Below, in pieces: positions 3,076 through 40,885 of a stretch of DNA of 64,000 nt; within the stretch, counting starts at the first letter, position 1; each line of letters starts with the position of its first letter. The stretch covers positions 496,001 to 560,000 of the forward strand of contig NZ_CP017706.1 of NCBI RefSeq assembly GCF_002706375.1, in the 5' to 3' direction. The position numbers were made by a program, and so were the translations under genes. This stretch comes from Lactobacillus amylovorus DSM 20531 (GTDB taxonomy: Bacteria; Bacillota; Bacilli; Lactobacillales; Lactobacillaceae). The notes beneath the pieces were generated by a model that was given only the letters and a program-made list of their open reading frames with translations, did not search any database and had not been told where the DNA came from.

Positions 3076-4359
3076 TTACCAATATTTCTTCAAAGGTGCC
3101 TCATCACGACCATTTCTAGTCTGGTATAAATGCTCTTTCACGATTTCGGTCAATACTTCGGCCAATTTATCAATTTGTTCAACTGTCGCATATTCGTAAC
3201 GACCATGGTAATTACCGCCACCGTTGAACAAGTTAGGCGTAGGGATACCCTTTTGCGTAATGAAGTTACCGTCAGTGCCGCCTCTAAAAGTTTGAATGTT
3301 TTGCTTAATACCAAGCTTTTTATATGCATCAAGCGCTAAGTTGACCACATATGGTTGATCCTTAATCACGTTGTAGATATTTTCATATTGACGCCGCATC
3401 TTCAGTGAAAAACGATCGCTATATTTTTCATTAAGTTCAGCAACAATATCTTTAATTAATTGTTCTTTTGCAGTAAATTTATTCCAATCAAAATCTCTAA
3501 TAATCAAACTAATGTCAGCATGATCAACTGAACCTGTCGCATTTAACACCAAGATAAAGCCATCGTGTCCCTTAGATTTTTCTGGTACTTCATCTTTTGG
3601 TAAACGATCCAAGAAATCATTCATCAACGTTGCGGCATTCACCATCAAGCCATAAGCTTCACCTGGGTGAACAACAGTGCCACGAATATGGATTTGCGCT
3701 TCTGTGGCATTAAAGGTTTCATATTCAAAATCACCGGGACGACCATTTTCCAAAGTATAGGCTAATTCAACATTAGGGAAATCTTTAGCATCAAAACGGC
3801 GACCACCATAACCGATTTCTTCATCTGGGCCAAAGCCGATATAAATATCACCGTGTTCAATGTCAGGATGTTCAGTCAAATACTTAAGCATGCTCAAGAT
3901 TCCGACAATCCCCGCTTTATCATCTGTCCCAAGTAGAGTATGTCCATCTGAAGTAATCAAAGTTTCTCCTTTGCAGCTGGCTAATGCCGGAAAATCTTTC
4001 GGATCAAGATAAATACCTTCTTTTTCATCCAGCACCACTCTCTTACCATCATAATTGCGGTGAACCTGTGGCCTAATATTTTCCGCATTAAAATCAGCCG
4101 TATCAATATGAGAAAAGAAGCCGATTGGTGTCACATCATCGGTTACATTTTTCTTCAAATGACCAATTGCAAAGCCAGTTTTTTCATTGTAATAGGCATC
4201 CAACCCAATCTCTTGAAGCTGCTTAGTCAACTCCTTGCCCATCTTAACTTGACCGATCGAAGTTGGTACTTGATCATGCTTTTCTTCATAAGATCTAGTA
4301 TTTTCTTTAGCGTAATGAATAAATGTTTTTTCAATAAAGTCTAAATCGTAAAAGGACAT
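3076..4359 (-). CDS. pepT: Peptidase T (tripeptide aminopeptidase)
   Basis: M20B zinc metallopeptidase that removes the N-terminal residue from tripeptides in the cytoplasm. It is part of the peptide-use machinery of amino-acid-auxotrophic lactobacilli. The metal-binding motif Ser-His-Ile-Asp-Thr-Ala-Asp lies near residues 84-90, followed by the bridging Asp in GTDDKAG and the catalytic Glu pair in GPDEEIGYGG. The length of 427 is normal. I chose the ATG at 4359 over the TTG one codon upstream because AGGAGG lies 6 bp before it. It is monocistronic or read with hicD upstream, although a terminator separates them. Confidence 0.95.
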   Translation of the reverse strand: MSFYDLDFIEKTFIHYAKENTRSYEEKHDQVPTSIGQVKMGKELTKQLQEIGLDAYYNEKTGFAIGHLKKNVTDDVTPIGFFSHIDTADFNAENIRPQVHRNYDGKRVVLDEKEGIYLDPKDFPALASCKGETLITSDGHTLLGTDDKAGIVGILSMLKYLTEHPDIEHGDIYIGFGPDEEIGYGGRRFDAKDFPNVELAYTLENGRPGDFEYETFNATEAQIHIRGTVVHPGEAYGLMVNAATLMNDFLDRLPKDEVPEKSKGHDGFILVLNATGSVDHADISLIIRDFDWNKFTAKEQLIKDIVAELNEKYSDRFSLKMRRQYENIYNVIKDQPYVVNLALDAYKKLGIKQNIQTFRGGTDGNFITQKGIPTPNLFNGGGNYHGRYEYATVEQIDKLAEVLTEIVKEHLYQTRNGRDEAPLKKYW

Positions 4360-16531: not shown

Positions 16532-16879
16532 TTAGTCTTCCTTTAATTCAACTTGCTTACCATTAGCCCAAAGTTTTTCAAGGTTGTAAAACTCACGTGC
16601 TTCCTTGGTAAAGATGTTAACTACAACGTCGCCTAAGTCTACTAAAAGCCAGTTAGAGTCTCTAGTACCTTCGATGCGGTAATCAGTGTAGTTGTTTTGG
16701 TGAGCTTCATCAACAATTGAGTTAACAATAGCGTGAAGTTGACGGTTTGAACCTGCACTAGTAATTACGTAGTAATCCGCTAAAATACTGATTCCGCGCA
16801 TATCATAAGCTTCGGTATCTTCACCGTGACGATCGCTAATAGCTTTAGTAGTAAAATCTAAAATTTCTTGACTAGTCAA
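16532..16879 (-). CDS. rsfS: Ribosomal silencing factor RsfS
   Basis: A 115-residue RsfS/Iojap protein that binds L14 on the 50S subunit and blocks joining with 30S when nutrients are short. Recognisable blocks are [43 protein letters not shown] and [10 protein letters not shown]. It follows yqeK by 21 bp in the conserved nadD-yqeK-rsfS order. Confidence 0.96.
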
Positions 16880-16900
16880 ATTTTTTCTCCTTTGTTTTTA

Positions 16901-17494
16901 TTATTTAGTACTCCAAACATTATATGCTGCTATAGTGCGTGGATAAATTCTTTTTCTCTTTTCAACTAAAAACTCTAAGGTGTGTGCTAACTGATAGCCG
17001 ACACCTTCATCAATGTTGGCATAAGTGATTTTACGTGCTTCATCTACGCCAGGAAAATCACGCCCTGGTTCAATAAAGTCGGCCATAAAGACGATTTTGT
17101 CCAGCATGGTCATCTCAGTATCACCTGTGGTGTGACGACGCACTGCGGTCAAAATTTCATGATCTCTGATTTTTAGATCGTGTTCGATAAAGTAAGTCCC
17201 AACGATACCGTGCCAAATTGCACGATTCCAATTAAGCAAATCCTTGTCAAAATCTTGTTCCTTGATTACCTTACGGTATTCTTCAACGGAAACTTGTTTG
17301 GCATAATCATGTACAAAGCCAGCGAGTGCTGCCTTATCTTCATCATAGTGATTCAACTTTGCTAATTTACGGGCAGTTTCACTAACGCGAACGCAGTGCT
17401 TAAATCTCTTTTTGTCCATATTAGCTTTTTCTTTAGCAATAATTTCATCACTAGATAATGGTGAATAAGTCTTTTTAAATGTTAGTTTCGTCAA
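16901..17494 (-). CDS. yqeK: YqeK HD-domain Ap4A hydrolase
   Basis: HD-superfamily metallohydrolase; characterised YqeK proteins split Ap4A symmetrically into two ADP. The metal-binding residues are the H of KHCVRVSE, the HD of GFVHDYAK, the H of NRAIWHGIVGTYF and the D of VFMADFIEPGR. I prefer the TTG at 17494 (197 residues), because AAGGGG lies 7 bp upstream, over the more distal TTG at 17515. It overlaps nadD by 20 bp, implying translational coupling. Confidence 0.9.
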   Translation of the reverse strand: MTKLTFKKTYSPLSSDEIIAKEKANMDKKRFKHCVRVSETARKLAKLNHYDEDKAALAGFVHDYAKQVSVEEYRKVIKEQDFDKDLLNWNRAIWHGIVGTYFIEHDLKIRDHEILTAVRRHTTGDTEMTMLDKIVFMADFIEPGRDFPGVDEARKITYANIDEGVGYQLAHTLEFLVEKRKRIYPRTIAAYNVWSTK

Positions 17495-34092: not shown

Positions 34093-34521
34093 AGGTTCGA
34101 GCAGTGGCTAAGGGTCTGCCACTGCTCAGTTATCCCCATTTATCGCTGCTTCCAGTCCCGAGACGAACTTTGTAAAGCAGTTCTTAATCATTCTTTTTCT
34201 GTTTTCGAAAAAGACTTGCTAAAAGAGATTGAATCTCATAATACTGATTCACATGACCCATATTGGTGTCTATACTCTGCACTTTCTCACCAGCGTGGTC
34301 TTGTAAAAGAAGCAAACATTGGGAATATGAAAATCATTGATAAATTAGCACAAATTACTCATAAACATTTTTCAAATAAATCAACTTACGCACTCAGAGC
34401 ATATATTCAATTGATATGTATGATACTTAATATAAAAAGTACTAATGAACTCAGTGATTTAAATTCATCTCTCTTAGCATTCTCCAAGATAACTCAAAAT
34501 TTTCTAAAAACCCTAACATGA
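34093..34521 (+). pseudogene. Orphan reading frame, probable gene fragment
   Basis: The frame is open from 34093, after three stops, to the stop at 34519-34521. It gives about 142 residues, but there is no ATG, GTG or TTG before the TTG at 34216 and no ribosome-binding site there. The C-terminal 100 residues (KEIESHNTDSHDPYWCLYSAL, then a helix-rich part) look like real protein and lack low complexity. The GTG at 34090, behind GGGAGG, is in another frame and stops after 24 codons. This is best read as the 3' remnant of a gene that lost its 5' end. The perfect 9-bp inverted repeat GAGCAGTGG/CCACTGCTC at 34099-34127 lies at the break. Not recognised. Confidence 0.4.
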
Positions 34522-34557: not shown

Positions 34558-34597
34558 AAAAAAGGACGATTTCCACTAAGGAATCGCCTTTTTTATT
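34558..34597 (+). terminator. Terminator
   Basis: The stem AAAAAGGaCGATTTCC/GGAATCGCCTTTTTT (one bulge) has a T run on the forward strand and lies 37 bp after the orphan frame. Confidence 0.75.
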
Positions 34598-34609
34598 GTA
34601 AATATATTT

Positions 34610-34771
34610 ATTTGTAATTCTCTTGAGTTAGATAAAAAATTGACGTCGTGAAGACTTTAAGCCATTGTTTGCTGTATTTACATTCCTCTTAGATTAGATA
34701 AAAAAGCAGCTTTTGCAAACGGCCTGTTTTTATCAGGATTTATTTACATTTCTCACGAGTTAAATGAAGAT
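34610..34771. CRISPR. Remnant CRISPR array, three 30-bp repeats, 66-bp period
   Basis: Three copies of a degenerate 30-mer start at 34610, 34676 and 34742, exactly 66 bp apart, leaving two unrelated 36-bp spacers (34640-34675 and 34706-34741). Copies share ATTTACATTTCTC..GAGTTAGATAAAAAA as approximate consensus; copies 1 and 2 differ mainly around positions 5-10 and 15-17, and copy 3 has decayed 3' bases. The AT-rich non-palindromic repeat starting ATTTAC and the 36-nt spacers are typical of type I-B (or III) arrays, not of type I-E or II-A. No cas genes are in the window. No further repeats occur at the expected -66 or +66 positions. Confidence 0.7.
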
Positions 34772-34925
34772 TTTAAACAAAACATTTGTTTTCTACTCAT
34801 AAAATTATATCAAAAGATATCAACTAAGAATAGTAGTTACAAGTAGAAATTTATCAATCTTATTTTTGATGTTTTTTATTAAAGTCTCTAATAAATTGTT
34901 TCAACTCATCATCAGGTTTAAACTC

Positions 34926-40795: not shown

Positions 40796-40885
40796 TTCAA
40801 AGCCTCCACTTACGTGGAGAACACTAATTACTCGTTCTTCTATTAAAAGTCGCTTCAGGATCACCTCCACTTACGTGGAGAAAAT
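40796..40885 (-). CRISPR. Remnant type I-E CRISPR array, two repeats, 61-bp period
   Basis: Two 29-bp repeats at 40796-40824 and 40857-40885 share CCTCCACTTACGTGGAGAA and are separated by a 32-bp spacer, a 61-bp period. The second copy begins AGGATCACC, giving AGGATCACCTCCACTTACG and so on, nearly identical to the L. acidophilus/helveticus type I-E repeat as I recall it. The palindromic CTCCAC/GTGGAG is typical. By analogy with other I-E repeats the array reads on the reverse strand, ending in the terminator at 40754-40788. No cas genes are present. In L. acidophilus NCFM the CRISPR locus lies between polA and purD, the same position as here. Confidence 0.85.

What the first reader, a model, noticed from the sequence alone, without database searches (positions are those of the whole stretch)
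34610..34771. Second, different CRISPR relic beside the R-M genes
Three degenerate 30-bp repeats at exactly 66-bp spacing with unrelated 36-bp spacers, a geometry and AT-rich repeat style typical of type I-B, not of I-E. Two CRISPR types appear to have sat within 6 kb of each other and both decayed.
Basis: partly seen in the sequence, partly recalled or inferred. Interest (0 to 1): 0.7.

Follow-up and report, generated by a model that had tools for sequence, protein, structure and literature searches.

The report
Cas-less CRISPR arrays aimed at CRISPR
Two tiny leftover CRISPR arrays in this Lactobacillus genome, in which no CRISPR genes were found, carry guides that match the genes of CRISPR systems themselves, so they may act as a trap that turns an incoming CRISPR system against its own genes.

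Summary
The three 30-bp repeats at 66-bp spacing (34610-34771) are real and type I-B: the same repeat forms full arrays in two other Lactobacillus genomes that have I-B cas genes. The "decayed relic" reading misses the main point. Both spacers match type I-B cas genes: 34640-34675 matches cas7, 34706-34741 (weaker) the cas3 HD motif; the L. gallinarum copy matches cas7 and cas5. All three targets sit on a conserved 5'-CCN PAM. None of 1000 shuffles per spacer, and none of 127 ordinary I-B spacers, scores as well. The neighbouring I-E relic (40797-40885) has one spacer, which matches I-E cas5e with a 5'-TAA PAM. Across the genus, 7 of 14 distinct spacers in short cas3-less I-E arrays match I-E cas genes at 27 or more of 33 bases, against 0 of 411 spacers from cas-bearing loci. 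No Cas1, no Cas3 above cut-off and no I-B Cas7 were found in this genome. This is the "anti-cas" orphan array known from E. coli type I-F, here in two other subtypes flanking one restriction operon in a Gram-positive. A sequenced L. intestinalis megaplasmid carries both targeted subtypes. That the arrays still exclude CRISPR-Cas is inferred; a fossil of self-destruction is the main rival.

The parts
34742..34771 (-). I-B repeat R3, leader-proximal
   Evidence: last 8 nt in the crRNA sense (presumed handle) match the family repeat
34706..34741 (-). spacer S_A, matches the HD motif region of type I-B cas3
   Evidence: mean 22.3 of 36 over 7 operons, 0 of 1000 shuffles and 0 of 1000 window 36-mers as good; NGG behind the match in 7 of 7 rows. 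Weakest of the matches
34676..34705 (-). I-B repeat R2
34640..34675 (-). spacer S_B, matches type I-B cas7 (codons for GRREDLKPLF)
   Evidence: best hit at the same cas7 site in 10 of 10 operons; mean 25.4 of 36 over 9 rows; NGG behind the match in 9 of 9 rows
34610..34639 (-). I-B repeat R1, terminal, most degenerate at its 3' end in the crRNA sense
34772..34830 (-). leader with an extended -10-like element (TG 34811-34812, TATAAT 34804-34809)
   Evidence: 30-nt leader pattern without mismatch in G000, G028, G012 and in no other of 75 genomes; 49 of 59 identical to L. gallinarum. The simple promoter scan did not call it
34563..34590 (.). terminator-like hairpin at the leader-distal end
   Evidence: scan calls it on the plus strand only (34567-34586); the minus-strand fold shows a hairpin there followed by U
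40797..40824 (-). degenerate I-E repeat
40825..40857 (-). I-E spacer, matches I-E cas5e
   Evidence: mean 20.7 of 33 over 18 operons, best 27 of 33; 0 of 1000 shuffles, 1 of 1000 window 33-mers as good; TTN behind the match in 17 of 18 rows
40858..40885 (-). I-E repeat
   Evidence: only match of the I-E repeat pattern in the genome
35368..40665 (-). type I restriction-modification operon (hsdS, hsdM, hsdR by reading the frames) lying between the two arrays; context only
   Evidence: open frames; names by eye, no family search

Best explanation
The window holds two orphan mini-arrays, one type I-B and one type I-E, whose spacers are pieces of cas genes of their own subtype (I-B: cas7 and cas3; I-E: cas5e). 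Shown: repeat subtype, spacer-to-cas matches, PAMs, no cas genes found, sharing between species. Inferred: the arrays are transcribed but idle until a CRISPR-Cas system of the same subtype enters, for example on a megaplasmid; the newcomer's Cas6 and Cascade then process and load the resident crRNAs, and its own Cas3 cuts its own cas genes, or primes spacer uptake from the carrier, so that the system is not established. The spacers were probably taken up from cas-bearing DNA while a cognate system was briefly present.
For: S_B has its best hit at the same cas7 site in 10 of 10 I-B operons. On codon alignments S_B averages 25.4/36 (cas7, 9 rows), S_A 22.3/36 (cas3 HD motif, 7 rows), the L. gallinarum S_A 25.4/36 (cas5, 10 rows); 0 of 1000 shuffles and 0 of 1000 window 36-mers do as well in each case. 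Best of 127 ordinary I-B spacers 20.3/34, against 24.7, 21.0 and 24.9. NGG behind the match, that is a 5'-CCN PAM, in 26 of 26 ungapped rows at the three sites; such conserved flanks occur at 102 of 11578 alignment positions. CCN is the PAM of newly acquired spacers in C. difficile type I-B (PMC8406132, abstract). The I-E spacer matches cas5e (20.7/33 over 18 operons; 0 of 1000 shuffles, 1 of 1000 window 33-mers as good; NAA PAM in 17 of 18 rows). 41 of 69 mismatches to best targets are at codon position 3, p 8e-6. 7 of 14 distinct short-orphan I-E spacers in the genus reach 27/33 or more against 0 of 411 ordinary ones. The L. intestinalis 319-kb plasmid carries a complete I-B set and a complete I-E set of cas genes.
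Against: No expression or interference data. The window's S_B differs from its L. kitasatonis copy and from the known cas7 targets near the PAM end, and its best match has 7 mismatches (29/36), so this copy may be blunted. S_A is weak: a first summed test did not single it out (223 against a null mean of 213, SD 7), the L. kitasatonis version is equalled by 6 of 1000 window 36-mers, and by single best hit it scores 25 against I-B and 24 against I-E genes. The first summed test of the I-E spacer was also within its null (426, null maximum 440). Repeats carry several changes each. Conservation above synonymous sites could partly be recombination: fourfold identity to L. gallinarum is 0.55 over six genes but 0.74 in polA beside the array. 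No exact present-day target was found. Cas-less genomes G003 and G020 have longer I-E arrays without anti-cas spacers.
Confidence: 0.68

Rival explanations
1. Suicide fossil: a resident I-B (and I-E) system took up spacers from its own cas operon, self-targeting selected for loss of the cas genes, and the arrays are inert remains.
For: Same spacer content and absence of cas; partly degenerate repeats; the window's S_B has lost matches near the PAM end. This origin is mentioned for the E. coli I-F arrays in PMC8616872 (passage).
Against: Leader, R2 and R3 are 83-87% identical to L. gallinarum against 0.55 at fourfold sites, with flanks that do not align; the presumed handles of R2 and R3 are kept while that of the terminal R1 is not. 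Seven distinct anti-cas I-E spacers at 27/33 or more in the genus argue for repeated retention. PMC2886076 (passages) argues on other grounds against this origin in E. coli.
Confidence: 0.26
2. Regulatory crRNA-like element (CreR or CreA style) that represses a cas operon or a toxin gene.
For: Short array, degenerate repeats, own promoter-like leader, guides matching cas genes.
Against: Targets lie inside coding sequences with matches along the spacer and a PAM, and no cas operon to regulate was found in the three species. A search for partial matches to promoters in the genome was not made.
Confidence: 0.03
3. Plain decayed antiviral arrays, with spacers from phages or plasmids that resemble cas genes by chance.
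For: Degenerate repeats, no cas genes found.
Against: Matches exceed the shuffles, sit on PAMs and recur in both subtypes. Blast of S_B and S_A against phages and of S_B and the I-E spacer against plasmids gives no match covering 80% of a spacer (best E 0.4); exact pattern scans of viral contigs for the cores of S_B and S_A find nothing.
Confidence: 0.02
4. RNA anti-CRISPR (Racr-like) decoy repeats that trap Cas proteins of an incoming system without cutting it.
For: Cas-less repeats of the right subtype with a promoter-like leader.
Against: Racrs are described as solitary repeats in viral genomes (PMC10651486, start of abstract in a search listing); here there are regular spacers with cas-specific sequence and PAMs, which a decoy does not need.
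Confidence: 0.01

Closest known systems
E. coli type I-F (Ypest) orphan arrays: 'anti-CRISPR' CRISPR3 of Touchon and Rocha 2010; [quoted passage not shown] 2016
   Same: Short array without cas genes, spacers matching cas genes of the cognate subtype, conserved among cas-less strains; proposed, and reported as shown in E. coli, to act against DNA carrying the cas genes (PMC2886076 passages; PMC8616872 and PMC5972030 passages; Almendros et al. itself not read).
   Different: Here subtypes I-B and I-E, in a Gram-positive; two subtypes about 6 kb apart around a restriction operon; species of the genus carry different anti-cas spacers. Exclusion is untested here.
Type I-B CRISPR-Cas on Lactobacillus intestinalis plasmid NZ_CP072985.1
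   Same: Same repeat family and 66-bp period.
   Different: Has cas6, cas8, cas7, cas5, cas3, cas4, cas1 and cas2, and its spacers do not stand out against cas alignments.
CreR / CreA mini-CRISPRs that regulate cas genes or a toxin
   Same: Mini-array with degenerate repeats whose guide matches the cas locus or its neighbour.
   Different: As recalled (only listings seen), those work with a resident system on promoters; here no cas genes were found and the targets are in coding sequence.

Membership tests
Orphan anti-cas array (E. coli I-F kind) | CRISPR repeats of one subtype with no cas genes of that subtype in the genome | tested here: met
   No I-B Cas7 and no Cas3 above cut-off in G000, G028, G012; Cas1 in 0 of these 3. 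G028 and G012 are drafts (97% and 99% complete).
Orphan anti-cas array (E. coli I-F kind) | Spacers match cas genes of the same subtype | tested here: met
   Window: cas7, cas3 (weaker), cas5e; L. gallinarum: cas7, cas5, cas7e. By single best hit the own subtype always wins for these, but for S_A only 25 to 24 (the L. gallinarum S_B was not in that call).
Orphan anti-cas array (E. coli I-F kind) | Protospacer carries the subtype's PAM | tested here: met
   CCN in 26 of 26 ungapped rows for I-B, compare PMC8406132 abstract; NAA in 17 of 18 rows for the window's I-E spacer, compare AAA listed for L. crispatus, whose listed types include I-E (PMC13119405 Table 4). The PAM of these Lactobacillus systems was not determined here.
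Orphan anti-cas array (E. coli I-F kind) | Conserved among cas-less relatives | tested here: met
   I-B array beside polA in this genome, L. kitasatonis and L. gallinarum; I-E array beside purD in the same three, with the same spacer in the first two and another anti-cas spacer in L. gallinarum.
Orphan anti-cas array (E. coli I-F kind) | Array is transcribed | not testable with these tools
   Only sequence signs.
Orphan anti-cas array (E. coli I-F kind) | Array acts against incoming DNA with the cas operon | not testable with these tools
   Needs a transformation assay.
Type I-B CRISPR array | Repeat found beside type I-B cas genes, regular spacing | tested here: met
   G019: arrays beside genes that score as Cas5b, Cas7/Cst2 and Cas1b; G042 has a I-B Cas7 and arrays of the repeat, one of them beside its cas genes.
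CreR / CreA mini-CRISPR | Guide matches a promoter and works with a resident cas system (recalled definition) | tested here: not met
   Best targets in coding sequence; no resident cas found.
Racr | Solitary repeat without a guide spacer | tested here: not met
   Regular 36-nt and 33-nt spacers with cas-specific sequence.

The most novel reading that the evidence does not exclude
In Lactobacillus, short cas-less type I CRISPR arrays are not debris but a maintained barrier: several lineages independently kept one or two spacers against cas genes and so stay free of CRISPR-Cas, and this lineage carries a two-subtype barrier (I-B plus I-E) against megaplasmids such as the L. intestinalis 319-kb plasmid, which carries complete I-B and I-E systems. 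The rule would be that a short cas-less type I array predicts anti-cas spacers.
Probability: 0.4. Interest if true: 0.85.

Novelty: new variant of a known kind. Interest (0 to 1): 0.72.

Why it matters
Orphan CRISPR arrays are often taken for relics. In E. coli type I-F they are anti-cas devices. The same content in types I-B and I-E, in a Gram-positive, with different anti-cas spacers in different species and a plasmid that carries both targeted subtypes, suggests that keeping CRISPR out is a recurrent strategy rather than an oddity of one species. It makes the question why many strains lack CRISPR testable: delete the mini-array and ask whether a CRISPR-bearing plasmid can now establish. It also gives a simple rule for reading orphan arrays: compare their spacers with cas genes first.

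Tried and rejected
Dispersed repeat family: rejected, though isolated copies exist in G025 and on the G019 chromosome. Phage or plasmid origin: exact pattern scans of viral contigs for the S_B and S_A cores empty; blast of S_B and S_A against phages and of S_B and the I-E spacer against plasmids gave partial chance matches or nothing; the I-E spacer against phages and S_A against plasmids were not run. Cas3-profile hits in G000 below the cut-off were taken as other helicases. The I-B region against plasmids found nothing.

Weak or contrary results. The first summed test did not single out S_A (223, null mean 213, SD 7) nor the I-E spacer (426, null mean 402, maximum 440); both became significant in codon-aligned tests, which for S_A also meant leaving out a gapped row. 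In the first aligned run S_A scored 19.5 with that row counted as zero, below the best of 200 shuffles (20.6). By single best hit S_A scores 25 against I-B and 24 against I-E genes. In one search the S_B comparison with L. gallinarum was out of register (10 of 36) and not used; searches give the aligned view. In one search the L. kitasatonis row was on the wrong strand and was ignored. The L. gallinarum S_A is 32 nt between repeats; it was scored as 36 nt with four adjoining repeat bases. One ordinary I-E spacer scored 33/33 (L107); its sequence occurs once in that locus, in the array itself, inside an open frame running on from cas3, so it was removed (411 of 412 left).

Rows set aside in the short-orphan I-E count: G028 (same spacer as G000), G059, G069 and the first array of G070 (same spacers as G058), G022 (irregular), and repeats without a partner at the right distance (G013, second site of G014, G044, G046, G054, G073). 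Spacers of longer orphan arrays (G003, G020, and the one locus examined each of G026 and G068; 46 spacers, best 26/33) were counted apart; the other array sites of G026 and G068 were not examined. The 14 distinct spacers come from 8 of the 48 genomes without Cas3 above cut-off; G060 and G070 are 57% and 71% complete, so absence of cas is uncertain there; in genomes at least 90% complete it is 4 of 8 spacers. The 27/33 threshold was set after seeing the scores, and one search used looser repeat limits on loci chosen. The G060 hit lacks an NAA PAM. Only 7 of the 8 I-E gene families were checked against NCBIfam: Cse1 fell below its cut-off and Cas2e is fused to an exonuclease-like domain; all eight are named in the plasmid's annotation.

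Full report
Observation. The three repeats are real, at 34609-34639, 34675-34705 and 34741-34771, spaced 66 and 66, and the whole-genome pattern search finds no others. A DNA search of 75 genomes of the genus with the region gave matches in 12, most of them short; a repeat pattern gave 6 of 75. G019 and G042 have long arrays of the repeat at 64-67 bp. G019 is Lactobacillus intestinalis: its 319,380-bp contig has the length and the match coordinates of plasmid NZ_CP072985.1, where cas6, cas8b1, cas7/cst2, cas5b, cas3, cas4, cas1b and cas2 are annotated beside the array (families). So the repeat is type I-B; by comparison with the cas-side leader of that array, the relic reads on the minus strand with its leader at the high-coordinate end.

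Distribution. The same small array is in L. kitasatonis (G028, 95% identical) and L. gallinarum (G012, 75%); the names come from contigs of the same lengths found. In all three it lies upstream of polA. None of the three has a I-B Cas7, a Cas3 above the cut-off or a Cas1. L. gallinarum shares the leader-distal spacer S_B but has a different leader-proximal spacer, as expected of a CRISPR array that lost or gained spacers near the leader.

What the spacers match. A pattern from S_B, searched in 301 genomes of the family, hit 4: this genome, L. gallinarum, and two genomes of other genera (G088 with 2 mismatches, G347 with 3), where the place is the cas7 gene of a I-B operon. In 397 genomes of the family 9 have this Cas7. 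Ten I-B operons (those nine and G019, fetched) were compared with the spacers: S_B has its best hit at the same cas7 codons in 10 of 10. On codon alignments of eight cas genes S_B averages 25.4 of 36 (9 rows without gaps), the L. gallinarum S_A 25.4 at cas5 (10 rows) and the window's S_A 22.3 at the cas3 HD motif (7 rows); the best of 1000 shuffles were 21.6, 22.0 and 21.5, and the best of 1000 window 36-mers was 21.9. Among 127 ordinary spacers of I-B arrays the best was 20.3 of 34, against 24.7, 24.9 and 21.0. S_A is the weakest: its L. kitasatonis version is equalled by 6 of 1000 window 36-mers, an earlier summed test missed it, and by single best hit it scores 25 against I-B and 24 against I-E genes. 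What carries it is that its best site is one of the few with a PAM: all ungapped rows at the three sites (9, 10 and 7) show NGG behind the match, that is 5'-CCN before the protospacer in crRNA sense, a flank conserved at only 102 of 11578 alignment positions. C. difficile type I-B needs YCN for interference and takes new spacers next to CCN, mostly from the plasmid that expresses the Cas proteins or from places where free DNA ends are expected (PMC8406132, abstract only).

The neighbouring I-E relic. At 40797-40885 there are two repeats and one 33-nt spacer, the only match to the I-E repeat pattern in the genome. The spacer's best aligned site is in cas5e: mean 20.7 of 33 over 18 operons, best 27; 0 of 1000 shuffles and 1 of 1000 window 33-mers do as well, although a first summed test was within its null. 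Seventeen of 18 rows have TTN behind the match, a 5'-NAA PAM; a review table lists AAA among the PAMs for L. crispatus, whose listed types include I-E (PMC13119405, Table 4 passage). The array lies about 100 bp from purD in this genome, in L. kitasatonis (same spacer) and in L. gallinarum, where the spacer is another one and matches cas7e (28/33) (purD by eye).

Genus-wide. In 48 genomes without a Cas3 above cut-off, 21 have I-E repeats. Their short arrays gave 14 distinct 33-nt spacers from 8 genomes. Seven match an I-E cas gene at 27 or more of 33: cas5e (this genome), cas7e (L. gallinarum), cas3 (G052), cas5e (G058, 30/33), cas7e (G060), and cas3 (32/33) and cas2e (29/33) in G070; an eighth, in G017, reaches 25/33 at cse1 with an AAA PAM. 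Of 411 ordinary spacers from cas-bearing loci none exceeds 25, and of 46 in longer orphan arrays the best is 26. Fisher's exact test for 7 of 14 against 0 of 411 gives 7e-12, with the threshold chosen after seeing the scores. In genomes at least 90% complete it is 4 of 8. Five of the seven have TAA or AAA before the best target; L. gallinarum has TGA there, although 13 of 18 rows give TAA; G060 has AAT. Over twelve spacer-target pairs 41 of 69 mismatches are at codon position 3 (p 8e-6; two of the twelve are versions of S_B). Not every cas-less array is of this kind: the long arrays of G003 and G020 show no anti-cas spacer.

Maintained or inert? For maintenance: leader, R3 and R2 are 49/59, 25/30 and 26/30 identical between this genome and L. 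gallinarum, against 0.55 at fourfold sites of six neighbouring genes, and blastn aligns nothing of the flanks; the extended -10 stretch is unchanged in the three species; a terminator-like hairpin follows the array in L. gallinarum, and in this genome the minus-strand fold shows one too, though the scan called it on the plus strand only; the presumed 8-nt handles of R2 and R3 (length recalled) are intact here and in L. kitasatonis and differ by one base in L. gallinarum, whereas that of the terminal R1, which no crRNA would use, has drifted. Against: polA beside the array has 0.74 fourfold identity, so local recombination could explain part of this; this genome's S_B differs from L. kitasatonis and from known targets near its PAM end; there are no expression data; the simple promoter scan did not call the -10.

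Precedent. Touchon and Rocha (2010, PMC2886076, passages) described a short CRISPR in E. coli lacking the Ypest cas genes, with only spacers matching those genes, and called it an anti-CRISPR. Almendros et al. (2016; not read, described in passages of PMC8616872 and PMC5972030) showed that such arrays act against plasmids carrying the I-F cas genes. My searches of the open-access library listed no report of anti-cas arrays for type I-B, I-E or Lactobacillus; most papers listed were seen only in the listing, passages of a few were read, and the library lacks most subscription papers.

Reading. The most likely account is that these are anti-cas orphan arrays of two subtypes. A plausible target is a megaplasmid: the L. 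intestinalis plasmid carries complete I-B (20-30 kb) and I-E (81-90 kb) cas sets, and the two I-E spacers of G070 and one of G017 find their best target in that very I-E system, whereas this genome's I-E spacer fits the operon of G004 best. That the spacers derive from cas genes I hold for about 95% certain for S_B and the L. gallinarum S_A, and somewhat less for S_A and the I-E spacer; that the barrier is still active in this genome is inferred, at perhaps even odds.

Noticed in passing
G025:C43:69858-69886 (locus L075, 1501-1529): A solitary I-B-like repeat followed closely by a terminator-like hairpin, in a genome with no other match to the repeat; its shape recalls solitary repeat units (RNA anti-CRISPRs).
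   Followed up: partly
G019:C1:862291-863725 (locus L026): On the L. intestinalis chromosome two single I-B repeats lie 1.4 kb apart, one behind a leader-like stretch resembling that of the plasmid array: perhaps an orphan array split by inserted DNA.
   Followed up: no
locus L024, about 16787-17383 (plasmid NZ_CP072985.1): A small second I-B array and an isolated degenerate repeat lie between cas5b and cas3 of L. intestinalis.
   Followed up: no
locus L024, 10218-11474: A TnpB-family gene lies next to the leader-distal end of the L. intestinalis I-B array.
   Followed up: no
locus L171, about 3336-3485 (G070:C38): A short I-E array whose two spacers match cas3 (32/33) and cas2e (29/33) with AAA and TAA PAMs, best against the I-E system of the L. 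intestinalis megaplasmid.
   Followed up: partly
locus L118, 1380-2255: Cas2e of the I-E system in G004 is fused to a DEDD exonuclease-like domain.
   Followed up: no
locus L027, 14093-16773: polA of the L. kitasatonis draft is split into two open frames, possibly a sequencing error.
   Followed up: no
window 34216-34521: A 101-aa open frame before the array with no function assigned here; not among the frames listed at the L. gallinarum locus.
   Followed up: no
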